A stretch of DNA of 64,000 bases, from IMG/VR virus record IMGVR_UViG_3300028908_000006, positions 1 through 64,000 of that record; one strand, 5' to 3'. This DNA is from a virus. The notes beneath the pieces were generated by a model that worked only from the letters and a program-made list of their open reading frames with translations, searched no databases and was not told where the DNA came from. Made by a program: the position numbers and the translations under genes. Shown piece by piece: positions 1 through 59,872 of this stretch; the first letter of the stretch is position 1, and each line of letters begins with the position of its first letter.

Positions 1-170
1 AACAAATCATATTTTACATTTAAAATTTTAAATTCTCTATTTATTTCTTCTATATCTTTTTTAAAAGATTTTATCTCATTCTTCAAAGATATTATCTCTT
101 CCTTAAGAAGGGATATTTCTCTTTCAATAACTTTTCTAAAATCAGCAATGTCAACCTTCCTTCTCTTCAT
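1..170 (-). CDS. Partial coiled-coil protein
   Basis: The N-terminal 56 residues of a protein whose remainder lies beyond the left edge. The start ATG (168-170) overlaps the stop of the upstream gene as TGATG, so translation is probably coupled. The visible part is rich in Lys, Glu and Ile with a hydrophobic residue every three to four positions, as expected for a coiled coil. No catalytic motif can be seen in the part present and no function can be assigned. Confidence 0.7.
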   Translation of the reverse strand, partial: MKRRKVDIADFRKVIEREISLLKEEIISLKNEIKSFKKDIEEINREFKILNVKYDL

Positions 171-1261: not shown

Positions 1262-3730
1262 TCATTCACAACTCCCGGTGGTGGAGCCACACTCATCGCA
1301 GTAGAAACAGGAACCGCGACGTCTCATCACGGCTCCGCACTTAGTACATAGAATACCATGAGATTCGTCTTCTTCAACTTCTTTTTCTTCCCTGGTAAGG
1401 AATTTCTTTTCAAGGTAGCGAGCAAGATAGTCCAGAATAGAAGAAGCAGAAGGGATCTCTGGATCTCCTGTAAACCCAGATGGATCAAAGCGCATTCCAC
1501 GAAACTTCCTTATGATGGTCTCTAGTGGGACTCCATGTTGGAGCGCTATCGAGAAGAGAACACAAAGCCCATCAAGAAGCCCGGAAAGAGTAGATCCTTC
1601 TTTGGCCACTTGAATAAACACTTCTCCAAGATCACCAGATGGATAGGTGCCGGTGATGACATAGAAGGAAGTGTCTGCTAGACGGGCTTTGTGTATCGTG
1701 GCATTTCTTTCTTTTGGGAGCGGAATACGTTTAGCTGGTTTGGGAGAGATAAGTCTTTTCTGGTTACCAGCATAAAGGGCCTGCACGGCCTTACTTCCAT
1801 CTCGATAGACCGTTACCCCCTTAAGTCCCAGTTTCCAGGCAAGAAGGTAAACATTTTCAATATCTTTCGGTGTTGCTGAGTTTGGTAAGTTTACCGTCTT
1901 TGAGATAGCCCCGGAGAGCCATTTCTGGGCGGCGGCTGAAACTCGCAAGTGTTCTTCAGCAGAGATAACATATTCAGGATTTGATGAGACTGCTACCTTA
2001 AATAATGCTTTAAGAGAAGAAGGAAGCCACTTTGGCGGCTCTCCAGTCTCAGAGAATATCTGGATGGCTTCTCGTGCCGTCCTACCATCAAAATGCTTTA
2101 TAAGCACCATTTCAAAAGCAGGTGTTGGGATAGTAATAGTCTCTCCATCCATGAGTCGCTTCTGGATCGTGTGGGCATAGAACGGTTCAATTCCAAAAGA
2201 TTCAGCTCCCATAATGAAAGAGATGGTTCCTGTGGGTGCCTGGAGAGTTACCTGCTCATTGGCAAACGGTTTCTCCGGATCTATACTATCCCAAACAGAT
2301 AATACCTGCTGGTCAAAGAGATCGTTTGAATCTGAAAAAGTCTCCTTTGCCTGGCCCTTCCAATAAAGGATAAGTTCTTTGTGATCTGGATTGTATCTTT
2401 CATAAGGTTGGAATTCTTCAGCAAGAGCGGCTGAATGTTTGAAAGCAAGACCATGCAGAAGAGCATAAAAACGTTCCACCTGTCGTAGCATCTCAGGAGA
2501 TCCATGAGCTAGTCCAAGATCAAGACAGGCCTTTACGACATTCGTAAACCCGATCCCAATCGCTGCGTATTTCTTCGTCTCCTTTGAGATTCTCTTATCA
2601 GGATAATAGGCATTGTAACAGATAGCTGTCATTGCATAGACGAGCGTCTTTACAACCTTATCAAATGTCTTAAAGTCAAAGTTATTGTTATCATCGTAAA
2701 ACTTTGCTATGTTAATAGAAGCTAAATTACACGAACTAAAGTTATGTCCACAGAATTCTGAGCATGGGTTAGTCGCATTTATTGTATTACTTTTGTCGCA
2801 GTTAAATCTATTAATTGTATCAATAAATACTAATCCTGGATCACCTGTTTTATGAGCCGCCTCTACAGCTCTCATCATTATATCTCTTGCTCGTACTACC
2901 TTGGTAATGTCTTTGTATTTAGAGCCCTGTAAGACCCACTCCTTATCATTTATTACAGCATTCATGAAATCGTCTGAAGCACCAATGGAAATGTTTACTG
3001 ACTGAAAGGCCACTTCTCCAAACGGATCCTTTATAACTTCGTTCTCAAGAAGGACTCTGGCCTTGTTCTCTTCATGGACTTTGCAGGAGATGAAGTCGAA
3101 GATGTCTAGATGGTCTGCATTCAAGATAACAAGCTTTGCGGCCCTTCTAAGCCTCCCACCTGATAAGACTACCTCTGCTCCCGTGGCAGAGAGTTTAAGG
3201 AATGAAACAGGCCCTGAAGCAGATCCACCTGAAGAGAGCGGTTCAAGTTTTGAACGCAAGGGAGAAGTGTTGTAGCCTGATCCTGCTCCAAGTTTGAATA
3301 TGCGGGACTCCAGAGAAAGGATGTCGTAGATGGAGTCAAGGGTGTCTTCTATGGCAAGGACATAGCAGGCAGAGCAGAGTTGCGGGCCAGGAAGTCCCAG
3401 GTTGAAATAGACAGGCGAGTTGAAGGCAAAATACCCATTTAACTGGAAATACATAAGAGCATCGTAGAAGGTTTTTACCTGCTCATCGTTCCACTTATAG
3501 AGCTTTTTGGCCCAGGAAGAGAGTGCACGGGAGACACGATCAAACATCTCAACTACTGATGTCTCTGTCTTCTTAGCGGAGTTACAGAGATAACGGGATG
3601 CTACTATCTTTGCCTGGGTTTCATTCCACCACGATGGAACTTCTATCTCCCTGGTTACAAGATTTCCATTGTTGTCGTAGAATGACACGCTTCTCTTTAC
3701 CAGATGAACTCCATAAAGAGAATCCGGCAT
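1262..3730 (-). CDS. nrdJ: Class II (B12-dependent) ribonucleotide reductase
   Basis: 822 residues. It reduces ribonucleotides to deoxyribonucleotides using adenosylcobalamin to make the thiyl radical, so it needs neither oxygen nor a second radical subunit. Visible hallmarks are the first redox Cys region (QLCSACY, about residue 117), the NPCSE active-site motif with the radical Cys and Glu (about residue 320), and the APTGTIS phosphate-binding loop (about residue 500). A TSCPD-type domain follows, and the C-terminus is a Cys-rich tail with two CxxC pairs and a final CE. The length fits the large NrdJ subfamily. AGGAG lies eight bases before the ATG. It is the distal gene of the operon starting at 5988 and feeds phage DNA synthesis together with ThyX. 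Confidence 0.95.
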   Translation of the reverse strand: MPDSLYGVHLVKRSVSFYDNNGNLVTREIEVPSWWNETQAKIVASRYLCNSAKKTETSVVEMFDRVSRALSSWAKKLYKWNDEQVKTFYDALMYFQLNGYFAFNSPVYFNLGLPGPQLCSACYVLAIEDTLDSIYDILSLESRIFKLGAGSGYNTSPLRSKLEPLSSGGSASGPVSFLKLSATGAEVVLSGGRLRRAAKLVILNADHLDIFDFISCKVHEENKARVLLENEVIKDPFGEVAFQSVNISIGASDDFMNAVINDKEWVLQGSKYKDITKVVRARDIMMRAVEAAHKTGDPGLVFIDTINRFNCDKSNTINATNPCSEFCGHNFSSCNLASINIAKFYDDNNNFDFKTFDKVVKTLVYAMTAICYNAYYPDKRISKETKKYAAIGIGFTNVVKACLDLGLAHGSPEMLRQVERFYALLHGLAFKHSAALAEEFQPYERYNPDHKELILYWKGQAKETFSDSNDLFDQQVLSVWDSIDPEKPFANEQVTLQAPTGTISFIMGAESFGIEPFYAHTIQKRLMDGETITIPTPAFEMVLIKHFDGRTAREAIQIFSETGEPPKWLPSSLKALFKVAVSSNPEYVISAEEHLRVSAAAQKWLSGAISKTVNLPNSATPKDIENVYLLAWKLGLKGVTVYRDGSKAVQALYAGNQKRLISPKPAKRIPLPKERNATIHKARLADTSFYVITGTYPSGDLGEVFIQVAKEGSTLSGLLDGLCVLFSIALQHGVPLETIIRKFRGMRFDPSGFTGDPEIPSASSILDYLARYLEKKFLTREEKEVEEDESHGILCTKCGAVMRRRGSCFYCDECGSTTGSCE

Positions 3731-3741
3731 GGGCGTTCTCC

Positions 3742-4026
3742 TTATTCTGATTTTTTCTCAATAGCTTTTTCAATAGCTGATTTGAGAACTTTTAGGGTCT
3801 CAAGGGATAGTTTATCAAGATAGAAAGAAATGTTCGCTTCTTCGATAAGAAGATCAACTGCAGAAGGCTCCAGTTCAATAGTCACTCTAGGAATCAAGTC
3901 ATCGGAATCCACCTCAATTGCAAGCCGTCTAACACACGGCATTGAATACCCATCTACATCAAATTCCACATCAGGATACTTACCAGAAAACACTCTTTTA
4001 AAACGGATAGTTGGAAATTTAGACAT
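3742..4026 (-). CDS. Hypothetical small protein
   Basis: 94 residues, not recognised. The N-terminal two thirds alternate hydrophobic and charged residues like a beta-rich domain, and the last 25 residues form a Lys/Glu helix. A perfect AAGGAGG lies before the ATG. It sits between the RecA-like gene and the reductase with about 11-base gaps on either side, so it is certainly co-transcribed with them and may be a partner of one of them. Confidence 0.75.
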   Translation of the reverse strand: MSKFPTIRFKRVFSGKYPDVEFDVDGYSMPCVRRLAIEVDSDDLIPRVTIELEPSAVDLLIEEANISFYLDKLSLETLKVLKSAIEKAIEKKSE

Positions 4027-4037
4027 AGCAACCCTCC

Positions 4038-5105
4038 TTATTGTGCTGTGCTATATTGATGAAAGTTGTATTTTTGGGCGTATTCCTCTGCCTTGGTGAT
4101 GAGCCAATCAGGAATGCCAAGGGCAGGGCCGTATTCCTTAAGTATCCTTAGCTCCTTCTCATAGTCTGTATCTATGCGGAAGCGGATCATTTTATCCACT
4201 ATCTCCTTTGGAAGAACTACCGTAGGATGTTCAGCGGCAGAAGGATGCCTAAACTTGTTCTTGTCTCCTACCTGATACTTTCCCCAAACAGCAAGGAAGT
4301 AGGAAAGGCCTGATAGCGGGTGAATTCCTTTCCCGCCCTTATCCAGGTAAAGAACTGTCTTTGATGGTTTGTCTCCTTTAAGCATTCTTGTTTTGTCTGC
4401 CACGGCAAAGAGGAAAAACCCTGGGAGATCAGGGTTTGTTACTTCAGACTCCCTTGTAGCTTGCAAGGCCAACCCACATGTTCGCAGGAATGTTATTCCC
4501 GTCCCACCTGATTTCTTAGGAGTGGAACTCATAGAGTTAGGGTCAAGGTAGAGATGATTGGCTGCAAGAATGAATGAAGATTCAGTCCTGTCTAGATAAG
4601 GCCCTATCTTTCGTAGGTAGTCTTTCACTCCCTTTGCTACCCTTCCCATATCAGCTGAAGTGGAAGTAAGAGACTTCTCATCCTTTACATAGGCCCCAAT
4701 GGAGTCAATGGCTATCATGATGTTAGGCGGCGCATCTGATTCAAATATCTTAAGGGAGTGCTCCATCAGCTGATCTACTGTGGCACACTCATAGGGCGGG
4801 ACATAGATGAATCTCTCAGGGGCTATTCCAAGGGAAAGAAGGTGGGGTTCTTCAAGGGCCCCTTCTCTGTCAAACCAGAGGATAAGATTTTCTGGATTGA
4901 GGTCTAGAAAGACACGGGCGGTGCGTAACATGATGTACGTCTTACCAGTAAGTGACCAACCGTAGAGTTCAGATATTCGGCGGACAGGAAAGCCGCCGCC
5001 AAGGATGAGATCAAGAGAAAGGATACCAGTTGATACCCTGGGGAGTTTCTCTACTTTGGTGGATAGTTTCAGAAGTTTCTTTATTTCCTCAGCTGTCTTC
5101 GCCAT
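4038..5105 (-). CDS. RecA/UvsX-family recombinase
   Basis: 355 residues. The ATP-dependent strand-exchange protein used for recombination-driven replication and repair. The Walker A box GWSLTGKT is at residues 49-56, the Walker B strand IMIAIDS lies near residue 130, and the region after residue 190 (KKSGGTGITFLRT) matches the DNA-binding loop and allosteric core of RecA-type ATPases. The N-terminal short helix plus 'STGILSLDLILGGG' is typical of RecA. It is diverged, closer in feel to phage UvsX than to host RecA, so no symbol is given. The start has AGGAG upstream and overlaps the upstream gene by 17 bases. Confidence 0.88.
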   Translation of the reverse strand: MAKTAEEIKKLLKLSTKVEKLPRVSTGILSLDLILGGGFPVRRISELYGWSLTGKTYIMLRTARVFLDLNPENLILWFDREGALEEPHLLSLGIAPERFIYVPPYECATVDQLMEHSLKIFESDAPPNIMIAIDSIGAYVKDEKSLTSTSADMGRVAKGVKDYLRKIGPYLDRTESSFILAANHLYLDPNSMSSTPKKSGGTGITFLRTCGLALQATRESEVTNPDLPGFFLFAVADKTRMLKGDKPSKTVLYLDKGGKGIHPLSGLSYFLAVWGKYQVGDKNKFRHPSAAEHPTVVLPKEIVDKMIRFRIDTDYEKELRILKEYGPALGIPDWLITKAEEYAQKYNFHQYSTAQ

Positions 5106-5697
5106 ACTTTATCTCCTGAGCTATGTTTTCAATATCAAACCCATACCTGTCTATCAGGTGGGCTATCTTCTGGAATCCAAGATGTGGGAAGGCTTTTTCT
5201 GTTCTGTGGAAGAAGTAGGGATAGAAATAACCTGAGAAAGAAGGAGAGTTGATATAGTAAAGAGTCCCTTCCTGGCTATGGAATTCCTTGATGGATCCTT
5301 TCAAGATAGCAGGGATGATTGTTTGGTAGTTTGCTATGATTGGCTTGTTTATGTATACCTGGTAAGTCTCTCGTATGATGGCCCGGATTGGCTCTTCGAC
5401 ATCTATGATGGAGAAAGAAATAGATTTTCCTGTATTGCCAGAGGCAACAATGGCTGTCATGATGGCCCGTGCTATGGTTGTTGAGACAAGACACACCTTC
5501 TTGTCTATGACACATACATACCGTGTCGTTATCATGGAATTGAAAGATTCAGGAGACACTAGAATGTTGTAGCATACAGGGCACGAAGCCAAATGCCTCA
5601 TAGATGGTGTATTTGTATGTCTCCATAGACACGGTATGAGATGTGTCTCACTCCAGAAGGATTTGATAAGGCTTGAAAGATTACCCTGGTCAAGCAT
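5089..5697 (-). CDS. Hypothetical Cys-containing protein upstream of recombinase
   Basis: 202 residues, not recognised. Near the N-terminus it has C23 and a CPVC pair (about residues 39-42) that could form a zinc site with a neighbouring His; the rest alternates beta-like segments. The ATG follows the Csx3-like gene's stop codon with no spacer, and its 3' end overlaps the recombinase start, so all three are translationally linked. The location suggests a recombination accessory role, but the sequence does not show one. Confidence 0.75.
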   Translation of the reverse strand: MLDQGNLSSLIKSFWSETHLIPCLWRHTNTPSMRHLASCPVCYNILVSPESFNSMITTRYVCVIDKKVCLVSTTIARAIMTAIVASGNTGKSISFSIIDVEEPIRAIIRETYQVYINKPIIANYQTIIPAILKGSIKEFHSQEGTLYYINSPSFSGYFYPYFFHRTEKAFPHLGFQKIAHLIDRYGFDIENIAQEIKYGEDS

Positions 5698-5988
5698 TTA
5701 CCGAATCTCCACTACATCTCCTGGGTTTACTCCACGGATGTGAGACTCAACTACAACCGCTCCATCAAGTCTCGGATCATATACTCCTACCCAAGCACAA
5801 GGATGGTAGTGGTGAATTAGGTAGCCATATAGCCAGATAGGACCACGGCCAGAAAGAACCACGCCCTTAGTGGTCCCAACAGAAGGCGGAGAGATCTTCT
5901 TTAGATCCTGCGGGATGATAGGTTCTTCAGGAAGGGCAAACTCTACAAGAGTGAATCCGTTCTTATCGGTGGTTTTGAACTTTATCAT
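5698..5988 (-). CDS. csx3: Csx3-like cyclic-oligoadenylate (ring) nuclease
   Basis: 96 residues. Csx3 (Crn3) proteins accompany type III CRISPR systems and cleave cyclic tetra-adenylate, the second messenger that switches on CRISPR ancillary nucleases. The core from KGVVLSGRGPIWL (41-53) to GAVVVESH (76-83) matches the Csx3 signature closely, including the YDPRL motif. H59/H60, D71, R73 and H83 correspond to residues important in characterised Csx3 enzymes. The start at 5988 was chosen over an in-frame ATG at 6033 because AGGAG lies seven bases before it, because Csx3 homologues start at the same point, and because the upstream ATG would fall inside the promoter at 6024-6052. In a phage the likely role is to destroy the host's CRISPR alarm signal. 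Confidence 0.9.
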   Translation of the reverse strand: MIKFKTTDKNGFTLVEFALPEEPIIPQDLKKISPPSVGTTKGVVLSGRGPIWLYGYLIHHYHPCAWVGVYDPRLDGAVVVESHIRGVNPGDVVEIR

Positions 5989-6023
5989 GGAAGCTTCTCC
6001 TTTTTTGATGGGCTTGCTCCTTC

Positions 6024-6052
6024 TCTTTACCACGAAGAAAGGGAGATGTCAA
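6024..6052 (-). promoter_or_regulatory. Sigma70-type promoter for the csx3-recA-nrdJ operon
   Basis: On the minus strand a perfect -35 box TTGACA (6047-6052) is followed after 17 bases by TAAAGA (6024-6029). Transcription would begin near 6017, about 30 bases before the Csx3-like start codon, leaving room for its AGGAG site. This placement excludes the in-frame ATG at 6033 as start. Confidence 0.6.
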
Positions 6053-6431
6053 CTGGACAGGTGAATGGAAAGGTTGGCTCAAAAATAAAGTTTTTCTATT
6101 TGTTGGAAAAGTTTGTTGATTCCATTTTTCTTCTTTCCTTTCTTTATCAGGTAAAAAGAATGAAATTTTGGGGATCGTGTCTGTGCCCTGTCTGAAGCAT
6201 CAATGAGACCCAAAACCAGGCCAGAAGAGATGGTATTTAAGTGTCTAATTTGGAATCGTTTTAAGTCTTATTGAAGATGAATTGCAATAGTGAAGGAAAG
6301 GAAAAGGCAAGAAGGCAGGAAATGGTCACAGAAATAGCGTGTTTTGTGGGCTGATCCCTATCTTTGGGCAGACTGGTAGCGTTTAAGGTAAGGAAGTTAT
6401 TTAGAACTTTTTTAGACTGGCTTAAGTTTTA
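6053..6431. other. Gene-free gap upstream of the csx3 operon
   Basis: About 380 bases between the primase-helicase stop and the csx3 promoter. No open frame with a ribosome site is visible on either strand, and no repeat or strong hairpin with a T-run. It is purine-rich on the plus strand around 6290-6330. It probably holds upstream promoter control sites, but nothing specific can be named. Confidence 0.5.
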
Positions 6432-9400
6432 CTAGCCTGACATATTTAGTAGTGCGTAAGCTCTTGGAACTATTACAAGTCCAAGGTATTTCCTTACCTT
6501 GCTTGGTGAATCTGTATCGAAAGCAATGACATCGGTTCCAAGTGGTTTGTATCCCAGAGCTACCAGTATATCTTTTACGATGTTGATTAGCTTTGAGCGT
6601 TCCATTCTAATGATAGCTTCCTTGCTTCCGAGTCTCTTAACGAGCTCCCGCTCTATCTTCTTGAGTTCCTCTTTGTTTCTAATGAACTTTATTCCTGTAA
6701 TGACAGGCTTCATTTCTTTGGTAGTGGGAGTGACGAGCCAGAACTTGTAGTAGGTTCTTCTTTCACCACCTACATACCGCCTGAATGATTCATATTTGAT
6801 TCCAAGCCTTTCCAGGTCTTCCTTGTGAACTTGTAAGAACTTCCCAATAGCCACCCGAGACATCTCTTTTCCGTGTGCTTCAAATAATTGCTCGAGTTTC
6901 TTGGATGACACAAGCACGAAATCACGTTCATCTTTCATGTTCTTGTTTATTATTTTTTCGAGTACTTCATAAGCCTCTGGATCTGAGAACGCTCTAAGAT
7001 CTTCATCTATTTCGAAGCCATCATCCGCTTCATCACACCCTGCTATGATCTCTTTGGCTGTATCCAGGGAGATGTATCTCGTGAGAGAAGTTTCTCCGTT
7101 CTTTTCAACCACCCGCTCAGCTATTAACTGAATCATCTTACATACCACCTTGAACACGGCCATCCTGTCATCCGGATCAACCTTTATCTCAGCCACCTTC
7201 CGACACAACCAGTCCTTATCTGGATCACTTGATCCAACGATCTCTTCTGTCACTTCTATCTCATAATCCGGATTACAATACATCTTTGTTCTTAGCTTGG
7301 CCTTATACTTGACCACGGGATTGTTCAGGGCAACGCTTGCAAGCTCCATGATAGCCCCAACTATCTCGCCGGCCATCTTGCTGGCAATGTAGGCCGGAGA
7401 GATAGAGCCTGCTTCAGCCTTCTTGAGCGTGATATGGACCAGCCTGTTGTTGAAATCCTGAGAATCTTTCCTCCAGACTCCGTAATGGGAAAGAATGATA
7501 GTAGTTCTGTCTGGATCAATTGTAATCTCTTCCACTTCTGAGTTGGTGTAGAGCCTTCTCATGATAACTGTCCCACCAAGAGATTGAGTATTAAGCAGGT
7601 TTATGGTATTCCTTCTTATCTTGTCAACTTCATCCATAATCAGCCCGTTGCTGTTGTGGACGATGGCAAGAAAGTCTCTCTTCTTGCATGAACCACCAAC
7701 GTGAGTGGGGAATCCAAATAGAGTGGTAAACACCCGTCCCATATCTGATTTACCCACACCAGTTGCTCCCTGATAGACGAAGATAGGCTTCTCTACCGAA
7801 GGAAGCCCTGTCATGACCAGGCAACCAGCATGAGCCACCCTTCCCTTTGGAGAGTAGCACCTTGTATTCTCGACAAGAAGCGCAAATCCGTTTCCATCTG
7901 AAACCGGCATGGGAATTCTTCTTCTTTCTTCCTTGTAGAGAAAGTATATGTTGTCCGGAAAGCTCTTCTCGACTCCATCAGGAGTCACCTTGACCACACC
8001 ATCTCTTGTGTAGTAGTAGATGTGGTCCGCTATCTCGAGTTTGTCTGTCTTGCAGATGAAGACATCAGCACTCTCTTCAGCCGCATCTTCAAGAAGGTAT
8101 TCCACATAGACGAGAGAGTTTGGGTTTGGATTGAGATCTATCCCGGACTCAACGATAGCCTTAACCATCATCCCACGAGCTTTCCTGGTATCGAGCTTGA
8201 CTGCTTCGTGAGTATCTTTATCCAGCAAAAAGATCTCTCCAAAAGCCTTAACCACCCGATACTTCTTAATAACAGCTTCAAATAGTTCCTTTACCAGTAT
8301 CTTTCCTTTCTTGCTCCGCTTCTCTTTAACATCCCTGGTGAACTCAACTATGTCAGCTCCTTCTACTTCTTCAAAGGAGACCTTCATCCCTTCCTTGAAA
8401 TGGGAGTCAGGATCAGCACCATCAGGAAGCCTTGCAATCCTTACTTCTATCCCGGCATCAACCAGCTTCTCAGCAGAAGCAATACTTCCATCCCGGCCAG
8501 CCTTGTCTCCATCGAACATGAGAAGGGCTTTCTTTATTCCTTCTCTCTTCAGCAACTCCACTTCTTCTTTGGTAAGCCTTGAAGTGCAGGTAGCAACAAC
8601 ATTCCGATGCCCAATCTCCCGCAACCGCAACATATCAAACGGGCCCTCTACTACGATAAGGAATCCAGCCTTTCTGGCTTCCTCAAGCCCACCATCGTAG
8701 AAACCAAGAAGGAGTTCTTTCTTCCTAAAGAATCTATTGTTTGAGAGACAGACATACTTCTTGTCTCCATCTCCTTCTGGCTTCCGATAACCTATGACTC
8801 CAACTATATTCCCATTCTTGTCATAGAAGGGAAAGATGAGCCGGTCACAGAGACTCTGGTGGGGATAAAGATAAGTCTTGACATCTGTCTCTTTCTTTGT
8901 TACTATCTTGAGAGATATGAGATCAGCTAGGAGCTTTTCTCCGTATCTCTCAATTAGTTTGTTTATTATTTCTTTTATTCTGGTGGCTGGGATGTAGAAA
9001 GTCCCAGCCACTTCTTTTTTGATCCCACGGGAAGCCAAAACTCCCACCTTCTTCTCTTCATCGTTTCCTTTTTCAATAATGCCGCTCATAAGCCTTGCAT
9101 ACTTGTCGTAATTGAGAATCTGCATAGATTTTTCCTCCTTTCTTACTTCTTTCCTGTTTCCTTTCCTGGTCTCTATCCTGGTGTAATCTCCAGCGATCTC
9201 CCTGAGGACTTTCAGGGCCTCCTTGTAGTCACAGGCCCGGAAGTGTTTGATGAACTCAATGGCATCAGCTGCCTTCCCACAACCGAAACAATAAGCCGTA
9301 TGATCTCCTTCCTTCCAGGCAAGGGAAGGCTCGTGGTCGTCATGCATGAAACACACCATCTTATACCACTCGCCTTCCTTCCTGTATTCGACACCAAGAA

Positions 9401-9455
9401 AATCGGCAACTTCAGTAAGTCTTACCTTTTCTTTGATTTCTTTTACGGTTTCCAT
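6432..9455 (-). CDS. Giant primase-helicase (CHC2 - Toprim - AAA+/SF3-like)
   Basis: 1007 residues. It should make RNA primers and unwind DNA at the fork. A DnaG-type CHC2 zinc finger is at C35, H38, C56 and C59. A Toprim domain follows with the catalytic Glu at 270 and DGD at 315-317. A P-loop ATPase lies in the second half with Walker A GATGVGKS (563-570) and Walker B LIMDE (605-609). The ATPase is preceded by a long linker and resembles virus-type (SF3/AAA+) helicases rather than DnaB. The C-terminal 300 residues include a likely winged-helix segment. It starts a leftward transcript with the DUF1599-like gene. The window encodes a second, unrelated primase-helicase at 15235. Confidence 0.88.
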   Translation of the reverse strand: METVKEIKEKVRLTEVADFLGVEYRKEGEWYKMVCFMHDDHEPSLAWKEGDHTAYCFGCGKAADAIEFIKHFRACDYKEALKVLREIAGDYTRIETRKGNRKEVRKEEKSMQILNYDKYARLMSGIIEKGNDEEKKVGVLASRGIKKEVAGTFYIPATRIKEIINKLIERYGEKLLADLISLKIVTKKETDVKTYLYPHQSLCDRLIFPFYDKNGNIVGVIGYRKPEGDGDKKYVCLSNNRFFRKKELLLGFYDGGLEEARKAGFLIVVEGPFDMLRLREIGHRNVVATCTSRLTKEEVELLKREGIKKALLMFDGDKAGRDGSIASAEKLVDAGIEVRIARLPDGADPDSHFKEGMKVSFEEVEGADIVEFTRDVKEKRSKKGKILVKELFEAVIKKYRVVKAFGEIFLLDKDTHEAVKLDTRKARGMMVKAIVESGIDLNPNPNSLVYVEYLLEDAAEESADVFICKTDKLEIADHIYYYTRDGVVKVTPDGVEKSFPDNIYFLYKEERRRIPMPVSDGNGFALLVENTRCYSPKGRVAHAGCLVMTGLPSVEKPIFVYQGATGVGKSDMGRVFTTLFGFPTHVGGSCKKRDFLAIVHNSNGLIMDEVDKIRRNTINLLNTQSLGGTVIMRRLYTNSEVEEITIDPDRTTIILSHYGVWRKDSQDFNNRLVHITLKKAEAGSISPAYIASKMAGEIVGAIMELASVALNNPVVKYKAKLRTKMYCNPDYEIEVTEEIVGSSDPDKDWLCRKVAEIKVDPDDRMAVFKVVCKMIQLIAERVVEKNGETSLTRYISLDTAKEIIAGCDEADDGFEIDEDLRAFSDPEAYEVLEKIINKNMKDERDFVLVSSKKLEQLFEAHGKEMSRVAIGKFLQVHKEDLERLGIKYESFRRYVGGERRTYYKFWLVTPTTKEMKPVITGIKFIRNKEELKKIERELVKRLGSKEAIIRMERSKLINIVKDILVALGYKPLGTDVIAFDTDSPSKVRKYLGLVIVPRAYALLNMSG

Positions 9456-9472: not shown

Positions 9473-9784
9473 TTACTTGGTTTCTTTCTTTTCTTCCCTG
9501 GCTACCAGTATAGCCAGAAGACAGTAATTTGCCAGATCTAACAGAGTATCCTCAAGTGTTTCTTCTTTCACTTGAGCCTCACCTTTCTTTACCAGATTAC
9601 AGGCCCGACTGAACTTATCAGATATTCTTACCATGATCCCTTGAAGTGGTGTGAGACTAAGTAACTTAGCCTGCTTGAAGTTTCCCAGGTAATCGTCTCC
9701 GGCATAGTCTGCATTCTTGGCATCGTGTATCCTTCCTATCTTTTGAAGAAGACGGTCAAACTCTTCCTTCTTGCTGTAAGGCAT
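9473..9784 (-). CDS. DUF1599-like (Nmad1) protein
   Basis: 103 residues. It resembles the DUF1599/nucleotide-modification-associated family, small all-helical proteins found in phages next to nucleotide or DNA metabolism genes; their exact chemistry is not settled. The supporting stretch runs from HDAKNADYAGDDYLGNF through PLQGIMVRISDKFSR to EDTLLDLANYCLL. The start at 9784 has GGAGG seven bases upstream; earlier in-frame ATGs would overlap the divergent gene and lie upstream of the promoter at 9821-9849. A link to modified bases is possible but nothing else here demands it. Confidence 0.65.
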   Translation of the reverse strand: MPYSKKEEFDRLLQKIGRIHDAKNADYAGDDYLGNFKQAKLLSLTPLQGIMVRISDKFSRACNLVKKGEAQVKEETLEDTLLDLANYCLLAILVAREEKKETK

Positions 9785-9804
9785 CTCCCAACCCTCCATC
9801 TTCC

Positions 9805-9833
9805 TTGACATGGTCTGGATATTATGATACGTT
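9805..9833 (+). promoter_or_regulatory. Rightward promoter of the replication operon
   Basis: A perfect TTGACA (9805-9810), 17-base spacer, and a weak -10 TACGTT (9828-9833). Transcription would begin about 9840, only a few bases before the ATG at 9843, giving a leaderless or nearly leaderless message; in agreement, that gene lacks a clear ribosome site. Confidence 0.5.
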
Positions 9834-9849
9834 ACGGACATCATGTCAA
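9821..9849 (-). promoter_or_regulatory. Leftward promoter overlapping the rightward one
   Basis: On the minus strand TTGACA (9844-9849) is followed after 17 bases by CATAAT (9821-9826), a near-consensus sigma70-type promoter. Transcription would begin near 9814 and reach the DUF1599-like start at 9784. It occupies almost the same bases as the rightward promoter, so RNA polymerase cannot sit on both at once. Confidence 0.65.
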
Positions 9850-10742
9850 GCACGATCATCTTTACAGGTGACTGGCATTTCAAACAGGCGAGCTACCGAA
9901 AGAGAGAACTCCTCGCTTTCTTTTCCTTCCTTGAGAAAAAACATGATCTCCATGATACCTACCTCGTTCTCCTGGGAGACATATTCGATTCAGCTACCGG
10001 CATAGACTGGGAATTCTTTATAACACTATACAAGTTTCTCTCATCGTTCAAAGGAGTTCAGATAGTAGTTGGAAATCATGATTGTGTCCTTCGTGACCAC
10101 TCTCCCAGGGGTCCCATGAAGATGTTGTTCACTCTACCAAACATCACCTACCTGTTCCCATACTGGGACTATTATGCCTCCTCATACATAAAAAAAGGCA
10201 TAAACATACATAAAAATAGACATAAAATACTTGTATGTCATAAAGACATAAAGGACATAAATTTTTATTCAGATGAGGAGTATGCTATTTCACTTGCTGC
10301 ACTCTCTGAGTTCCATCTGGTAATCAATGGCCATCTTCATGTAACGGCCCGTCATGGGAACGTCATCTTACCTGGCCCGCCGTTTCCAACATCATTTTCA
10401 GACACCTGTAAAGGAGGCTATCTTGTATTCGATGGGAAAAATATTGATTTCGTTGAAACGAACGTATCAATCTATCTTACGCATGATAATGACCTCCCGC
10501 TTGATGGATTTCTATCTCCGTATCTTAGAAGGTATGAGATCATCCATGTGAGAACCGATCAGGAGTTCTTGCATAGCAGGGTTGTGTTACATAGTAGGAA
10601 ACGGGAACATCGAGCTACTCCATCAAGCACGGCTTCAGTTCCTGATTTTGATACCGTGCTTGAAATGTCGAATCTCTCCAGTAGAGAGAAGAGGATCTTG
10701 AGGGCTATATATGGTAAAGAAAAAATACGTGCCGGCTATTGA
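9843..10742 (+). CDS. sbcD: SbcD/Mre11-like nuclease
   Basis: 299 residues. The two-metal phosphoesterase subunit of the Mre11-Rad50 (SbcCD) complex, which trims DNA ends and opens hairpins. Motifs in order are D10-x-H12, GD at 45-46, GNHD at 77-80, H133 in ILVCHKD, and GHLH at 163-166, the complete metal-binding set. The C-terminal third is less conserved and should bind the Rad50 partner encoded two genes downstream at 11718. The segment encoding residues about 112-140 is made of CATAAA repeats (array B). The start lacks a good ribosome site, consistent with a leaderless transcript. Confidence 0.9.
   Translation: MSSTIIFTGDWHFKQASYRKRELLAFFSFLEKKHDLHDTYLVLLGDIFDSATGIDWEFFITLYKFLSSFKGVQIVVGNHDCVLRDHSPRGPMKMLFTLPNITYLFPYWDYYASSYIKKGINIHKNRHKILVCHKDIKDINFYSDEEYAISLAALSEFHLVINGHLHVTARHGNVILPGPPFPTSFSDTCKGGYLVFDGKNIDFVETNVSIYLTHDNDLPLDGFLSPYLRRYEIIHVRTDQEFLHSRVVLHSRKREHRATPSSTASVPDFDTVLEMSNLSSREKRILRAIYGKEKIRAGY
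10187..10260. repeat. CATAA repeat cluster inside sbcD (array B)
   Basis: Seven CATAA motifs (minus strand TTATG) start at 10187, 10199, 10209, 10221, 10239, 10247 and 10256, several extended to RGACATAAA. This is the complement of the motif in array A, with 12- and 18-base spacings recurring. The cluster lies in coding sequence and spans the codons of the conserved active-site His motif. Confidence 0.55.
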
Positions 10743-46825: not shown

Positions 46826-46902
46826 TGGAGCCGGTGGAGGGACTCGAACCCTCAACCTATGGATTACAAATCCATTGCTCTACCAAATTGAGCTACACCG
46901 GC
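46826..46902 (-). tRNA. tRNA-Thr (TGT)
   Basis: Cloverleaf on the minus strand: acceptor GCCGGTG / CACCGGC, D-arm with GGTAG, anticodon stem ATGGA / TCCAT around TGT (codon ACA), T-arm GAGGG / CCCTC with GGTTCGAGTCC. The discriminator is followed by an encoded CCA (46826-46828). Confidence 0.95.
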
Positions 46903-48005: not shown

Positions 48006-48079
48006 GGGCCTGTAGCTCAGCTGGTTAGAGCCACCGGCTCATAACCGGTAGGTCCCTGGTTCAAGTCCAGGCAGGCCCA
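48006..48079 (+). tRNA. tRNA with CAT anticodon (Met elongator or Ile2)
   Basis: Acceptor GGGCCTG / CAGGCCC, D-arm GCTC...GAGC, anticodon stem CCGG / CCGG around CTCATAA, T-arm CCTGG / CCAGG with GGTTCAAGTCC. The G1-C72 pair excludes an initiator. CAT could read ATG, or ATA if the host modifies C34 to lysidine. CCA is not encoded. Confidence 0.95.
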
Positions 48080-48080
48080 C

Positions 48081-48911: not shown

Positions 48912-49196
48912 ATGTTAGTGAAGGAGAAGATACTTTCCTTGATACCAAAGGAAAAGCAAGGAGCTATTGTTGGTGATGAATTGTTTTTCGAATGCCCCAA
49001 TCCTGAACATGATGATGAAAACTATACGAACTGTTCTATAAACTTGAAAACAGGCCTGTATTATTGCTTTGTGTGTGGAGAGAAAGGCAACTTGAAGAAA
49101 CTAAGTCGCATTTACAAATCGTCATCTAACAATATGGAGTATGATCCATTCAAGCCCGCTAAACAGGGCGTCAAACGAAGCTGGAGAATATGGTGA
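48912..49196 (+). CDS. Stand-alone CHC2-type primase zinc finger
   Basis: 94 residues. CPNPEH...C...CFVCGEKGNLKKL (about residues 28-66) is the zinc-binding domain that DnaG-type primases use to recognise template, here without polymerase or helicase domains. It is the third such finger in the window. A GAGGGGG site favours either ATG 48912 or GTG 48918. It heads the packaging and structural operon, so it may have been recruited for DNA packaging or regulation. Confidence 0.65.
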   Translation: MLVKEKILSLIPKEKQGAIVGDELFFECPNPEHDDENYTNCSINLKTGLYYCFVCGEKGNLKKLSRIYKSSSNNMEYDPFKPAKQGVKRSWRIW

Positions 49197-50656
49197 GTGA
49201 TCCCAGAATCGAAGTAAGTGACGTAGCCCACCCATACCACACCAGTAACGTGTCTTTGTGGCGTGAGTGCCACCTCGCTTTTAGAGGTGGTAAGGAGTTT
49301 ATAGAGTATGTGATCTCACGCCATCAGCTTGAACTTGATGATGATTTTTACATCCGTAAAAAGAGAGCCTTCTACCTGAATTTCGTGAAACGGATCGTAA
49401 ATACGATGACGGACATCATTTTCGATAATATGATAGTCCGTCCAACGATTGATAAATACAAAGTTTTAAAACCTTTTTACAAGAAAGCGTCTTTCTATGG
49501 CGAATCGTATGAGACCTTCATAAGGAGAGTTTCAAAACTCTCCTCTGTTTTTGGTTGGGTAGTGGTGGCCGTTGATTTCTTCGGGACAAAGGTACCCACT
49601 CTTGCTGATGTTGAAAATGGTGTTGCATACCCGCGTTTGAGGCTCTTCACTCCCCTTGAATTTGTTGATTGGCAGAGAAATGGTGATGGGTTCAAGTATG
49701 GGGTGGTGAAGAGAGAGGTCTATGTGAAGGAAGATCCTGACAATCCGTTTTCTGAGACAAAGAACATAGATGAATATATCCTTTATACCGATAAAGAAGT
49801 CGTTGTAATCAGAGAGGATGTAATTTCAGCACGTTACAAGCATAACCTCGGATTCGCTCCTTTGATCCTGGTAAATGATTCCACAGTTGACGAGTTTGGG
49901 TTCTCTGAACCCCTCATCAAGGATGCCTCTCGAATAGCGGCCACAATAGTAAACTGGTCGTCTGTTCTTGATGAGGTCTTTTCAAGACAGACATTGTCCC
50001 AGCTTGTCTATCCCAATGAAGGGTCAATTGAAGAGGAAGCAGCAAGGCTCCTGGATCGTAGCAACATCCAGGGCCAGATCTCAAACCTGGATGATCTGGC
50101 TAACTTCGAGAAACTAGTGTTGAAGAAGATAGGGACGGCCAAAGTATTTACATATCCGGCAAATGCCGGCCACCCTCCACAATATATCTCACCACCGGCT
50201 TCTGATATGAGGATTGGCTGGGAGATAATAATGCAGCTTGCCCAGGTGATGTTCTTCCTTGTTGGTCTTGGTAGTGTGAGAGAAGATATTTATACAGCAT
50301 CTTCCAAGGCCAGAGAGTCTGCTCTTTCTTTGATGAAGTCATACCTTAAGGATAAGGCAAACAATCTTCAAACAGCAGAAGAGAATATTCTTCAAACATT
50401 CTTTGCCTATATGCCGCCAAGCATTTGCCCTGCATCTATTGAAGTTAAGTATCCAGCCGAGATAGATCCTGGTCCTTATATTGATTTCTTTAACGCTACT
50501 GTTCAGTCTCTCATTAAACCGAACATATCAACGGAATTCAACAAGGCAATTCTTAAGAAGCTCGTAGATAAGTGCCCATACTTGACAGATGAAGAGAAGA
50601 GTGTTATAAAAGACGAAATAGATGCTTCTTCTGGCATATTCAACATTCCAAAATAA
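49190..50656 (+). CDS. Portal protein
   Basis: 488 residues. Forms the twelve-subunit channel for DNA entry and the head-tail joint. Evidence: a helical N-terminus with RKKRAFYLNFVKRIVNTMTDIIF typical of SPP1/DUF4055-type portals, a beta-rich wing region, a central 'GFSEPLIKDASRIA' helix, and a C-terminal stem and crown region. Length is standard. It sits before scaffold, terminase and capsid genes. Overlaps the previous gene by seven bases. Confidence 0.8.
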   Translation: MVSDPRIEVSDVAHPYHTSNVSLWRECHLAFRGGKEFIEYVISRHQLELDDDFYIRKKRAFYLNFVKRIVNTMTDIIFDNMIVRPTIDKYKVLKPFYKKASFYGESYETFIRRVSKLSSVFGWVVVAVDFFGTKVPTLADVENGVAYPRLRLFTPLEFVDWQRNGDGFKYGVVKREVYVKEDPDNPFSETKNIDEYILYTDKEVVVIREDVISARYKHNLGFAPLILVNDSTVDEFGFSEPLIKDASRIAATIVNWSSVLDEVFSRQTLSQLVYPNEGSIEEEAARLLDRSNIQGQISNLDDLANFEKLVLKKIGTAKVFTYPANAGHPPQYISPPASDMRIGWEIIMQLAQVMFFLVGLGSVREDIYTASSKARESALSLMKSYLKDKANNLQTAEENILQTFFAYMPPSICPASIEVKYPAEIDPGPYIDFFNATVQSLIKPNISTEFNKAILKKLVDKCPYLTDEEKSVIKDEIDASSGIFNIPK

Positions 50657-50690: not shown

Positions 50691-51572
50691 ATGCCTGATA
50701 AGGACAAGGATAAAGATGTGCAGAAAGATGTCCATGATGGACAACAGCCAAACGTGAATGACGATGATGGTCGTTCAACGACTGATGCCGTTAAGAAAGG
50801 TATTGACGACATAAAGAAACAGGCTGCATCTACCAATGATCCTGAAGTGTTGAAGATCCTGCTGGACAAAATAACCTCTCTTGAAGAGCGTTTGTTGGAG
50901 TTACAACGACAGGAGGCTGAGAGGAAGGAACGAGAGGAGCAGGAAATACTGAAGCGTATGTCTGAGACTGAGAGGTTACGTTATGAGCTTGAGAAGAAGG
51001 AAAAGGAAATTGAGAAGGTTAAGAAGGAGCTTGAGGAGAGCCTTGGGAAGAAAGCGAGGGAGCTTGAAGAGCGTCTCAAGAAATATGAAGAGGATCGCAA
51101 AAAGCTTGCTGAAGCAGCGGCCAGGGCAAAAGCATTAGAGGCCGCTTCAAGATTTGGAGCATACAATCCTGAGCAGGTTTATCTCCTTATCAAGGACAAT
51201 CTTGTGGCTGGAGAAGACGGAAGCGTATTTGTAAGAGTGCGTGATGGTGAGCAATTCAAGCAGGTTCCTGTGGATGAGTATCTTAAAGAATTTCTTGCCC
51301 GTCCAGAAAACAAGAACCTCCTCAAAACCAATGCTGCTATTGGGGACAGGGATATAAGGCCCGAGGAAGGGGTAAAGACTTCCGCCCCATCTGCTGAAGG
51401 ACTCACTCCAGAGGTCGAGAAATTCTGGCGTGGTCTGTCTGAGCGTCAAAAGGAAAACATCATGAACAAAGCTATGATTATGAAGCGGCCGTGGCAGGAA
51501 CTGGCTCACCTGGAGTATATCAAATATACAAAGGCCAAACAATACAAGGAAAAATATATGAAGCGATCTTAA
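50691..51572 (+). CDS. Scaffolding protein
   Basis: 293 residues. Capsid assembly chaperone. It has a charged disordered start (PDKDKDKDVQK), a long Lys/Glu coiled coil from about residue 60 to 150, a small domain with GAYNPEQVYLLIKDNLV, and a basic helical C-terminus (KQYKEKYMKRS) of the type that binds coat protein. AAAGGAGG upstream. Confidence 0.8.
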   Translation: MPDKDKDKDVQKDVHDGQQPNVNDDDGRSTTDAVKKGIDDIKKQAASTNDPEVLKILLDKITSLEERLLELQRQEAERKEREEQEILKRMSETERLRYELEKKEKEIEKVKKELEESLGKKARELEERLKKYEEDRKKLAEAAARAKALEAASRFGAYNPEQVYLLIKDNLVAGEDGSVFVRVRDGEQFKQVPVDEYLKEFLARPENKNLLKTNAAIGDRDIRPEEGVKTSAPSAEGLTPEVEKFWRGLSERQKENIMNKAMIMKRPWQELAHLEYIKYTKAKQYKEKYMKRS

Positions 51573-51857: not shown

Positions 51858-52276
51858 ACGAAATTGTCGAGCTTTCAGAGGTTATAGAAGAGGCTCAGGA
51901 TGATATGGTTGACATTCCTGAGCCTCTTCATGCTGGTGAAATAACAGATCCCCATGAGATTGAAGAGAAGCTGGCTGAACTTCCGGAGGAGCTAAAAACC
52001 CATGCTGCTCAGGGGATATTGAAGAAGATTGATGAGGGGCTTGAGTGGGCTGAGAGAGGAGTGAGACAGTTCTTCAATACCTCTCCGAAGAGAGCTGTAG
52101 AGTTCCAGCAAAACTACATTTCATTCCTGGAACTTAAAGCCAAAATCCTGAAACTCATCTCTGATACCGGTAGCACGAAACAACAGGCTGTTAGTGCACA
52201 ACAGAATAACATCATTGTAGATCCTGAATCGGCAAAGGAACTTGTTAACAAGCTGGTAAAGAAGCTCTATGAATAA
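51839..52276 (+). CDS. Putative small terminase subunit
   Basis: 145 residues from a TTG at 51839. Acidic N-terminus, helical core (GLEWAERGVRQFFNTSPKRAVEFQQNY) and a short tail. Its place directly before, and overlapping, the large terminase by eight bases fits TerS. No HTH is visible, so assignment is positional. AAGGA precedes the TTG. Confidence 0.5.
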   Translation: MGKEEINEIVELSEVIEEAQDDMVDIPEPLHAGEITDPHEIEEKLAELPEELKTHAAQGILKKIDEGLEWAERGVRQFFNTSPKRAVEFQQNYISFLELKAKILKLISDTGSTKQQAVSAQQNNIIVDPESAKELVNKLVKKLYE

Positions 52277-53849
52277 CATTGATGTCTCAAGTCTTTCAGA
52301 CAATGAAAGGAAACTTCTCGGATATGCTTGTTCACTTGATTTCAAGGCTTTTATAGCCGTCTGTCTGAGAGACCAACTCAACTATCCTTTTTCGCCCTTC
52401 CATGATTTCATTTGTGACCTTATAACCCATAAGCTTGGGAGCAGGATGCGATATGTGGTAGCAGCTCCCCGTGGATTTGGAAAGAGCTCCATCATAACGG
52501 AAGCTGCTGCCTTATGGCTTATCTGTCGTAGAGAATACATTTCTCTGTCCGATAGAGATCCAAGGAATAAAAACTACATCATAGTGATTTCAGACACCAT
52601 AGATCAGGCCGTGGAGCACCTGGCAAACGTAAAAGAGTTGCTTGTGAACAATGATACGATACGGATGTTGTTTCCAAATGCTTCTGGTGAGGGGCGGGTA
52701 TGGAAATCAGACATGATTGTTTCAAGATCCGGGGTTGTGGTGAGATCTCTTGGAACGACATCCAAGATAAGAGGACGGAGATTTGGGTTTGCAAGGCCGG
52801 ATCTTGTCCTTGCGGATGATATAGAGAATCTTGAAATGGTGCAATCTGAATCTATGAGGAACTATCTCTATGAGTGGTTCACGCGTGACGTGTTGAAAGC
52901 AGTTGATCCGGAACGCTCAGATGTCATCGTGGTTGGAACGATAATATCCAAGAATGCTTTACTATACAAGTTGTTTCACTCTGAAGAATTTGCAGGGTGG
53001 GATGGTAGGAAGTTCAAAGCCATTATTTCCTGGCCAAAGAGGATGGATCTGTGGGATGCCTTTGGTGAGATCATAAAAGATCGCAGAGATCCGAATAGAT
53101 TCCAGAAAGCTATGGAATTTTATGAAGCGCACAAAGAGGAGATGGACGAGGGTGCTGAGATACTATGGCCTCAGAGATTTACTCTTGTTGACCACATGAC
53201 AGAGTTCTATCTCGAAGGCAAAAAAACGTTCATGCTGGAAAGACAGAATGAGGTTGTGGAAGATGTAGATCGTGTCTTTGAGATTGATAAATACTACTAT
53301 TATCAGGATGAGGAGCTGGAAGAAATACCAAAATCAAGACTCCTTTTCTATATGTATGTAGATCCAGCCACGGGCAAGAAGAAAGGCAGATCACGAAAAC
53401 AATCAACTGATATGTTTGCCTGTGTGGTGATAGCAAAGGACATTGGAACGAACGTGTATTATCTGATAGATTACTACGCTGATATTATATCACCCAACAG
53501 GCAATTCGCTGTAATAAAGAAATTCATAAACACATATCCGATATACAGGTTCTTCGTGGAATCAAATACAAGCCAGTTCTACTACTACGAGTCGTTGAGA
53601 GATTGGTTGTTGAGGTCCGGGATACATCGCCCGATACCGAGACCTCATGTGAACAAGGAAAACAAAGAAAGAAGGATTGAGGCTCTGGCACCGTATCTTG
53701 AGAACTGGACATTGAGACTGTCTCCAAACCACAGACAGATGATAAGGGATCTTGAGGATTATCCGGCAGTAGAATACGATGACCTTCTTGATTGCCTTTC
53801 ATCCTGTTTCTTCAATGCATACAAACAAAGGAGATTGGTTATTGCCTGA
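52269..53849 (+). CDS. terL: Terminase large subunit
   Basis: 526 residues. The ATPase-nuclease motor that packages DNA. Walker A-like APRGFGKSS (66-74), Walker B LVLADDIE (near 180), coupling motif VVGT, and an RNase H-like nuclease with YVDPATG (first Asp, near 368), ESN (near 432) and DDLLDCL near the C-terminus (third acidic site). All catalytic elements are present. Confidence 0.93.
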   Translation: MNNIDVSSLSDNERKLLGYACSLDFKAFIAVCLRDQLNYPFSPFHDFICDLITHKLGSRMRYVVAAPRGFGKSSIITEAAALWLICRREYISLSDRDPRNKNYIIVISDTIDQAVEHLANVKELLVNNDTIRMLFPNASGEGRVWKSDMIVSRSGVVVRSLGTTSKIRGRRFGFARPDLVLADDIENLEMVQSESMRNYLYEWFTRDVLKAVDPERSDVIVVGTIISKNALLYKLFHSEEFAGWDGRKFKAIISWPKRMDLWDAFGEIIKDRRDPNRFQKAMEFYEAHKEEMDEGAEILWPQRFTLVDHMTEFYLEGKKTFMLERQNEVVEDVDRVFEIDKYYYYQDEELEEIPKSRLLFYMYVDPATGKKKGRSRKQSTDMFACVVIAKDIGTNVYYLIDYYADIISPNRQFAVIKKFINTYPIYRFFVESNTSQFYYYESLRDWLLRSGIHRPIPRPHVNKENKERRIEALAPYLENWTLRLSPNHRQMIRDLEDYPAVEYDDLLDCLSSCFFNAYKQRRLVIA

Positions 53850-58796: not shown

Positions 58797-59780
58797 ATGC
58801 CACAGGTAACAGGCTCGTTCGGTAGAGTAGTAATAGACACTGAACAGACATATAAGACTGAAAAAACAACGAAGGCTGGATGGATTATACCATTCACTAC
58901 GTGTTCTCTCGGTAAGGATCAGAACCTGCTTGAGAGTAACACCATCTCTGCTTCTCGTAACCCACAACAGCCCGGTCTCGGGCAGATAAACGTATCCGGC
59001 GACCTGAGTGTTGAGCTTGGTGGAGCGGCCCACACTCGCCTTCTCTACCTGGCTCTTGGTGGTTACTCTGTAACCGGGACAGGGCCTTACACCCACACCA
59101 TCAAGGTTGGGTCGTCTATCCCATCCTTTATTACAGAGGTTCGTTTCTCTGATGGTGATGCTTTCACTCGTTATGCGAAATATGATGGTTGTAAGATCAA
59201 TCAATGGTCATTTGCTGTCAGGACTGATGCCTTTGTAGAGAGCACCTTCTCCATCATAGGATCTGAAGAGGTATTCGGCAGCACGGCTTACCAGGCTGAT
59301 ACAGATCTTGAAGATCCCGGCCTGAAGCCATTTACGAACTACAATGCTACTCTCTATCTTGGTGGTAGTGCGGTGGCCTTCATTACCGAGATTTCGTTTA
59401 CTGTTACCAATAACTTGGATGAAAATACATTTGCTATTGGGTCTGGCTCTGCCAGGACTTCGTTGCCAGAAGGCCGGGTGGCGGTCAATGGTAGCTTTAC
59501 TGCCCAGTTCGTAGAAGATGTTGAGACCTACATAAACATAGCTCAGAATTCTGATGAAACTCAGATTCAGATAGATCTTCAGCGTGGGACTGGTGATGGG
59601 ACCGATGGTAATGAGAAGATTTCCATTCTGTTTCCTGAAGTGAAGCTGCAACCGCCCCGTAAGGAAATCCCTGGGCCTCAGGGAGTATTCCTTACGTTTA
59701 ATTTCATTGCTTATGCTGATGATACTGATTCTGCTATACAGGTCACTTGTAACAACAGCATAGCTGATCTGTCCATCTAA
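58797..59780 (+). CDS. Major tail tube protein
   Basis: 327 residues, almost entirely beta-strands with Gly/Ser/Thr-rich turns (for example ISASRNPQQPGLGQINVSGDLSVEL), the pattern of siphovirus tail tube proteins. It is located between the tail terminator and the tail chaperones. Codon use is as biased as in the capsid gene. Two similar halves may reflect an internal tube-domain pair. Confidence 0.75.
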   Translation: MPQVTGSFGRVVIDTEQTYKTEKTTKAGWIIPFTTCSLGKDQNLLESNTISASRNPQQPGLGQINVSGDLSVELGGAAHTRLLYLALGGYSVTGTGPYTHTIKVGSSIPSFITEVRFSDGDAFTRYAKYDGCKINQWSFAVRTDAFVESTFSIIGSEEVFGSTAYQADTDLEDPGLKPFTNYNATLYLGGSAVAFITEISFTVTNNLDENTFAIGSGSARTSLPEGRVAVNGSFTAQFVEDVETYINIAQNSDETQIQIDLQRGTGDGTDGNEKISILFPEVKLQPPRKEIPGPQGVFLTFNFIAYADDTDSAIQVTCNNSIADLSI

Positions 59781-59795
59781 GCTTAGAACGAGTGG

Positions 59796-59872
59796 CGGGG
59801 AGTGGCGCAGTCAAGTAGCGCATCTGCCTTGGGAGCAGAAGGTCGGCGGTTCAAATCCGCCCTCCCCGACCA
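59796..59872 (+). tRNA. tRNA-Pro (TGG)
   Basis: Acceptor CGGGGAG / CTCCCCG with the C1-G72 pair typical of tRNA-Pro, D-arm GCGC / GCGC, anticodon TGG (codon CCA) in a CTGC / GCAG-closed loop, T-arm GGCGG / CCGCC with GGTTCAAATCC, and an encoded CCA (59870-59872). It lies inside the tail operon. Confidence 0.95.

What the first reader, a model, noticed from the sequence alone, without database searches (positions are those of the whole stretch)
5698..6052. Phage-encoded Csx3: candidate silencer of type III CRISPR signalling
Seen: a 96-residue protein matching Csx3 across its length, with the SGRGPIWL, YDPRL and VVVESH motifs and the His/Asp/Arg/His residues kept, under its own TTGACA promoter and at the head of the recombinase-reductase operon. 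Known: Csx3 (Crn3) cleaves cyclic tetra-adenylate made by type III CRISPR complexes; the described viral ring nuclease, AcrIII-1, is an unrelated family (DUF1874). Inference: this phage carries Csx3 as an anti-CRISPR, a different protein solution to the same problem. It lacks fused partner domains and any CRISPR neighbours.
Basis: partly seen in the sequence, partly recalled or inferred. Interest (0 to 1): 0.9.

Follow-up and report, generated by a model that had tools for sequence, protein, structure and literature searches.

The report
Phage-borne Csx3/Crn3 ring nuclease
A bacterial virus carries an intact copy of a CRISPR-associated enzyme (Csx3/Crn3) that in cells destroys the alarm molecule of type III CRISPR immunity, and about eighteen other virus sequences carry one too, so viruses have probably turned the cell's own off-switch into a way of silencing its defence.

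Summary
Window 5698-5988 (-) encodes a 96-aa Csx3/Crn3: Pfam 119 bits (cut-off 21), NCBI equivalog model 112 bits (cut-off 55), 53-58% identical to A. fulgidus Csx3, all studied cA4-binding and catalytic residues kept. An AlphaFold model (pLDDT 96) fits the cA4-bound Csx3 structure at TM 0.91. The 90.3-kb record closes on itself (127-bp end repeat) and has terminase, portal and tail genes; no Cas10, RAMP or CRISPR array was found. csx3 has the phage's codon use and leads a tight operon with a recombinase and a ribonucleotide reductase.

It is not alone: 18 IMG/VR contigs (16 if near-copies merge) plus a phage-like Pyramidobacter element carry Csx3 without RAMP genes. None was found in 50,697 GenBank phages or among viral predicted structures; a published survey of 28,114 phages lists other ring nucleases but not Crn3.

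Best reading: a viral cA4 ring nuclease, hence a type III anti-CRISPR; function is inferred. New variant of a known kind.

The parts
5698..5988 (-). csx3/crn3-like gene, 96 aa (stop codon 5698-5700)
   Evidence: PF09620 8.6e-35; TIGR02579 equivalog 112 bits vs 55.4; AfCsx3 fold TM 0.90-0.91
5997..6002 (-). Shine-Dalgarno AAGGAG, 8 nt before the ATG
   Evidence: sequence
6047..6052 (-). TTGACA, a -35-like hexamer; no consensus -10 follows (TAAAGA at 6029-6024)
   Evidence: weak
5089..5697 (-). next gene of the operon, 202 aa, unknown function; its ATG directly follows the csx3 TAA
   Evidence: no family above cut-off
4038..5105 (-). UvsX/RecA-like recombinase, overlaps the previous gene by 17 nt
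   Evidence: phrog_97 2.6e-34; PF00154 6.1e-10
3742..4026 (-). 94-aa protein of unknown function, 11 nt after the recombinase
   Evidence: no family
1262..3730 (-). B12-dependent ribonucleotide reductase (NrdJ-like)
   Evidence: TIGR02504 463 bits vs cut-off 400
6432..9455 (-). primase-like protein (CHC2 + Toprim), upstream of csx3 on the same strand
49190..50656 (+). portal protein (shows the record is a tailed phage)
   Evidence: phrog_145 1.3e-36
50691..51572 (+). head scaffolding protein
   Evidence: phrog_206 8.8e-11
52269..53849 (+). terminase large subunit
   Evidence: phrog_38 2.3e-84
58797..59780 (+). minor tail protein
   Evidence: phrog_290 2e-56
1..127 (.). 127-bp direct repeat shared with the far end of the 90,338-bp record: the assembly closes on itself

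Best explanation
A tailed phage carries a catalytically intact Crn3/Csx3 as an anti-defence gene. When a host type III CRISPR complex senses phage RNA and makes cyclic tetra-adenylate (cA4), Csx3 dimers would stack head to tail around cA4 and cut it, using the D71/R73 face of one dimer and the H59/H62/H83 face of the next. cA4-activated effectors would then not switch on and infection goes on. Shown here: family, fold, kept active-site residues, phage genome, operon position, no CRISPR genes or array found, independent viral relatives. Inferred: cA4 cleavage, dimer stacking, expression in time, and benefit against type III immunity.
For: Equivalog-level family match and fold match to the cA4-bound AfCsx3 crystal structure 6yud, TM 0.91, rmsd 1.1 A. 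Every AfCsx3 residue reported to bind or cut cA4 is kept; the H57, H60, D69 and H80 equivalents are invariant in 13 aligned sequences, 12 of them viral. Homologous cellular Csx3 cleaves cA4 and partly rescues plasmids from cA4-driven immunity in E. coli (PMC7371418). Phage nature: terminase, portal, scaffold, tail, own replication genes, closed ends. No Cas10, RAMP or CRISPR array in the record, whereas the closest cellular locus has Cas10 and RAMPs. Long residence in the phage: GC3 0.42 vs phage mean 0.417, mid-rank codon score. Recurrence: 18 other IMG/VR contigs and a phage-like Pyramidobacter element with GC from 0.29 to 0.63, mostly sharing nothing but csx3; tree support forces at least two changes between virus and cell. 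Purifying selection on one viral pair, dN/dS 0.20.
Against: The host is unknown, so whether it has a cA4-signalling type III system is unknown. Crn3 was absent from a published survey of 28,114 phage genomes (PMC12409355) and from 50,697 GenBank phages here, so it is rare. AfCsx3 turns over slowly and cooperatively (0.075 per min at 70 C, PMC7371418), which is poorly suited to a fast viral antagonist unless much protein is made. MmCsx3 relieved immunity only partly compared with AcrIII-1 (PMC7371418).
Confidence: 0.76

Rival explanations
1. Counter-defence, but against another cyclic-nucleotide alarm (CBASS cA3 or a related messenger) or with a changed ring-size preference.
For: Phages do encode enzymes and sponges against several such signals; Crn4b cleaves cA3 as well as cA4 (PMC12830947). 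The window protein differs from AfCsx3 at nearly half of its residues.
Against: [quoted passage not shown]
Confidence: 0.08
2. A binder (sponge) of cA4 rather than a useful turnover enzyme: it sequesters cA4 in stacked dimers.
For: Turnover of AfCsx3 is slow and an inactive variant forms cA4-bound filaments (PMC7371418); [quoted passage not shown]
Against: The catalytic D69/R71/H57/H60/H80 set is intact here and the histidines and aspartate are invariant in the aligned viral set; a pure sponge need not keep them.
Confidence: 0.06
3. A phage RNA-processing factor: Mn2+-dependent deadenylase, the activity first reported for AfCsx3, used on host or phage RNA.
For: AfCsx3 was first described as an RNA deadenylase (reported in PMC7371418); the gene shares an operon with recombination and nucleotide-metabolism genes.
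Against: The later work assigns the family to cA4; unrelated phages put the gene in differing surroundings, e.g. beside lysogeny-control genes.
Confidence: 0.05
4. Passenger or artefact: a stray piece of a host type III locus caught in a phage or in a misassembly.
For: Closest relatives sit in cellular type III loci.
Against: Closed record with the gene joined base-to-base (TAA/ATG) to a phage operon, phage-like codon use, no RAMP or Cas10 gene, and recurrence in unrelated virus contigs.
Confidence: 0.03

Closest known systems
Crn3/Csx3 of type III CRISPR loci (A. fulgidus AF1864, PDB 6yud/3wzi)
   Same: 53-58% identity, same fold, all reported cA4-binding and catalytic residues
   Different: encoded by a phage, alone, without Cas10, RAMPs, array, AAA or membrane partner
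Crn3 of a Saprospiraceae type III locus (L004)
   Same: 53-56% identity, with a near-identical core LSGRGPIWLYGYLIHHYHPC
   Different: sits downstream of Cas10 and RAMP genes; has K in place of R73
AcrIII-1 / Crn2 viral ring nuclease (DUF1874, PF08960)
   Same: viral, destroys cA4
   Different: unrelated fold; PF08960 absent from this phage and the other records tested
AcrIII-2 (viral SAVED ring nuclease)
   Same: cellular CRISPR cA4-handling domain taken over by a virus; subunits sandwich cA4 head to tail (PMC12751052)
   Different: SAVED domain, not Csx3
Crn4b, Csx16 and Csx20 in phages
   Same: ring-nuclease families already reported in phage genomes (PMC12830947, PMC12409355)
   Different: other families; Crn3 is not among those reported
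Virus-only Csx3 group of L007, L016, L018, L019, L020 (found here)
   Same: Csx3 domain (four of the five scored against NCBIfam, all four above its equivalog cut-off), H/H/D/R/H kept
   Different: a separate, well-supported lineage with an IEGRAPIWRYG..HG signature; the window belongs to the SGRGPIWL group

Membership tests
Crn3/Csx3 protein family | curated profile cut-offs (PF09620, TIGR02579 equivalog) | tested here: met
   119 vs 21 bits; 112 vs 55.4 bits
Crn3/Csx3 protein family | Csx3 fold | tested here: met
   AlphaFold pLDDT 96.3; AfCsx3 entries at TM 0.90-0.91
Crn3/Csx3 protein family | catalytic and cA4-contact residues (H57, H60, D69, R71, H80, S44, G45, R46, I49, I22) | tested here: met
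   all ten identical (roles)
Crn3/Csx3 protein family | Mn2+-dependent cleavage of cA4 to linear di-adenylate | not testable with these tools
   needs purified protein
Crn3/Csx3 protein family | dimer-of-dimers active site spanning two dimers | not testable with these tools
   only a monomer was modelled; residues of both faces are kept
Crn3 as a CRISPR-associated (Cas) gene | located in a type III CRISPR-Cas locus | tested here: not met
   no RAMP or Cas10 in the record, no CRISPR-like array; the same array script does flag cellular csx3 loci L005, L006, L028, L029, L034
Viral ring nuclease anti-CRISPR (functional class) | encoded by a virus | tested here: met
   terminase, portal, scaffold, tail genes in a closed 90.3-kb record
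Viral ring nuclease anti-CRISPR (functional class) | ring nuclease activity and inhibition of a type III system | not testable with these tools
   inferred from homology only
AcrIII-1 (DUF1874) | PF08960 domain | tested here: not met
   no match in the record
AcrIII-2 (SAVED) | SAVED domain | tested here: not met
   Pfam names only Csx3, and the significant fold matches are only Csx3 and Cat1

The most novel reading that the evidence does not exclude
Crn3/Csx3 is a recurrent viral anti-CRISPR, moved between cells and unrelated tailed phages more than once, including a virus-only lineage and virus-specific fusions (Nudix-like, and an unknown N-terminal domain); viral use might also explain why Crn3 is fast in its chemical step for a cellular off-switch.
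Probability: 0.6. Interest if true: 0.75.

Novelty: new variant of a known kind. Interest (0 to 1): 0.64.

Why it matters
It would add Crn3 to the enzyme families that viruses use to erase the cA4 signal. In the open literature searched, Crn3 is known only from cellular type III loci, and it is missing from the published list of phage ring nucleases. The authors of the Crn3 work asked why the enzyme cleaves so fast when it serves defence rather than viral offence (PMC7371418); viral versions make that question testable by comparing rates and cooperativity of viral and cellular forms. It also points to a practical gap: surveys of GenBank phages miss it, while metagenomic viruses carry it.

Tried and rejected
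Single-sequence scans for viral relatives found nothing until an alignment was used. No match among GenBank phages for either viral Csx3 type or in the viral structure library. Close relatives of this phage were sought through its recombinase: only 21-25% identical matches, so no presence/absence comparison was possible. Misassembly rejected (codon use, operon joins, closed record). A phage-borne CRISPR system rejected. The promoter claim was not confirmed. The tree cannot place the window's Csx3 within its group: most inner branches are weak with about 100 columns, and the cellular sample is small. dN/dS for the window itself could not be estimated because synonymous sites are saturated. Literature searches gave no report of phage-encoded Csx3/Crn3, but the library lacks most subscription papers.

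Full report
What is there. The minus strand of the window at 5698-5988 encodes a 96-residue protein with a good ribosome-binding site (AAGGAG at 6002-5997). It scores 119 bits against Pfam Cas_csx3 (cut-off 21), 112 bits against NCBI's equivalog model for 'CRISPR-associated ring nuclease Crn3/Csx3' (cut-off 55.4), and matches several PADLOC Csx3 models. The best solved relatives are the A. fulgidus Csx3 entries, including the cA4 complex 6yud. PHROGs has no family for it.

Active site. In AfCsx3 the cA4 contacts are I22, S44, G45, R46, I49 and R71, with D69 essential on one face and H60, H80 and conserved H57 on the other (PMC7371418). The window protein keeps all ten: I24, S46, G47, R48, I51, R73, D71, H62, H83, H59. 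Among 13 aligned sequences, 12 of them viral, H59, H62, D71 and H83 are invariant; R73 is K in the cellular L004 and in viral L017. AlphaFold2 with this alignment gives pLDDT 96.3, and Foldseek returns AfCsx3 entries at TM 0.90-0.91 and rmsd 1.0-1.2 A. The next match is Cat1, a cA4-binding CRISPR effector, which also matches the C-terminal half weakly by sequence.

Setting. The window is part of a 90,338-bp IMG/VR virus record whose two ends share an exact 127-bp direct repeat, so the assembly closes on itself. It carries terminase, portal, scaffold, head-tail adaptor and minor tail proteins and its own polymerase, primase/helicase, clamp loader, SbcCD-like proteins and a UvsX-like recombinase. 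No RAMP, no Cas10, no AcrIII-1 family protein and no array-like repeats were found. csx3 abuts the next gene (TAA immediately followed by ATG), which overlaps the recombinase gene by 17 nt; 11-nt gaps lead on to a 94-aa gene and a B12-dependent ribonucleotide reductase. Its third-position GC (0.42) equals the phage mean (0.417) and its codon score is mid-rank among ORFs of like length. A primase gene on the same strand lies 443 nt upstream. The proposed promoter has a perfect -35 hexamer but no consensus -10.

Relatives. One-sequence scans found none in viral contigs, but alignment queries, and a query with the Pyramidobacter protein, gave 18 distinct IMG/VR contigs, two of which (L014, L053) are near-copies of others. 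A plasmid-database search gave an 18-kb Pyramidobacter record in which crn3 stands alone, a few genes after a LexA-type repressor, with an integrase, Rha, a holin and DUF2815/polymerase genes, i.e. a phage-like element. Terminase matches are present on 11 of the 18 contigs, some weak or with stops inside. None of the 18 has a RAMP gene, and none of the 11 contigs tested has Cas10. Apart from csx3, the flanks of the window and of the first 12 contigs share little with one another (some replication genes, and the near-duplicates), and GC runs from 0.29 to 0.63. The same array script that is silent on viral loci flags five loci with cellular csx3. In the tree, five viral sequences (L007, L016, L018, L019, L020) form a supported virus-only group, L017 groups with Bacteroidota sequences, and the window lies unresolved in the SGRGPIWL group with AfCsx3, cyanobacterial and Saprospirales proteins; starred branches force at least two virus/cell changes. 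One close viral pair (L007/L018) has dN/dS 0.20.

How it most likely works. From the established action of Crn3, two dimers would sandwich cA4 and cut it to linear di-adenylate, draining the signal that arms Csx1/Csm6-type effectors. For a phage the plausible benefit is to survive type III immunity. The homologous MmCsx3 gave partial relief in E. coli (PMC7371418). Everything beyond sequence, fold and context is inference, and the slow, cooperative turnover of AfCsx3 is a real reservation: the phage form may be faster, made in quantity, or act partly as a sponge.

What is known. Open literature lists phage ring nucleases as AcrIII-1 in 36 genomes, Csx20 in four and Csx16 in two of 28,114 phages searched also with Crn3 profiles (PMC12409355), Crn4b in 11 phages (PMC12830947), and AcrIII-2 (PMC12751052). 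Csx15 was not seen in phages (PMC13148439). No paper found reports viral Crn3. Our own tblastn of 50,697 GenBank phages is negative and no viral predicted structure in the library has the fold. The finding is therefore a new variant of a known kind: a viral ring nuclease drawn from a family not previously recorded in viruses as far as could be searched, found again in several unrelated viruses.

Verdict. Observation confirmed; interpretation plausible and strengthened, function unproven. Confidence that the protein is Crn3-type with an intact site: about 0.97; that it sits in a phage genome: about 0.95; that its main role is to remove cA4 from type III signalling: about 0.76.

Noticed in passing
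L009:9464-10309 (+): In one phage contig Csx3 lies in a single open frame behind a Nudix-like N-terminal region (RAVEEELGI box; PF00293 E 0.0056, below the cut-off), a possible Nudix-Csx3 fusion. L014 is a near-copy with the frame broken inside csx3.
   Followed up: partly
L052:5515-6258 and L053:5515-6258 (+): Another viral Csx3, of the virus-only type by sequence, continues one open frame with an N-terminal region of about 160 aa of unknown kind.
   Followed up: no
L007:6996-7505 and L018:864-1361: A gene of unknown function (165-169 aa, 67% identical) directly follows csx3 in both of these closely related viral elements.
   Followed up: no
L037:69-1007 (-): In a genome of the same order as the Saprospiraceae MAG, a predicted membrane protein is fused to Csx3; in L004 a similar membrane protein gene directly precedes csx3.
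   Followed up: no
L046 around 6001-6171: A Csx3 homologue on a viral contig that lacks the H60 equivalent (HILLNP), perhaps a binder or a decayed copy.
   Followed up: no
L003:9585-9652 and 9767-9834: Two imperfect copies (85%) of a 68-nt sequence 182 nt apart in the phage record beyond the window.
   Followed up: no
window 10711-11733 (+): Protein matching phage RNA polymerase sigma factor families (phrog_351, 5.6e-15), so the phage may control transcription with its own sigma factor, which could explain the missing consensus -10.
   Followed up: no
window 46826-46902, 48006-48080, 59796-59872: Three tRNA genes: Thr(tgt), Met(cat), Pro(tgg).
   Followed up: no
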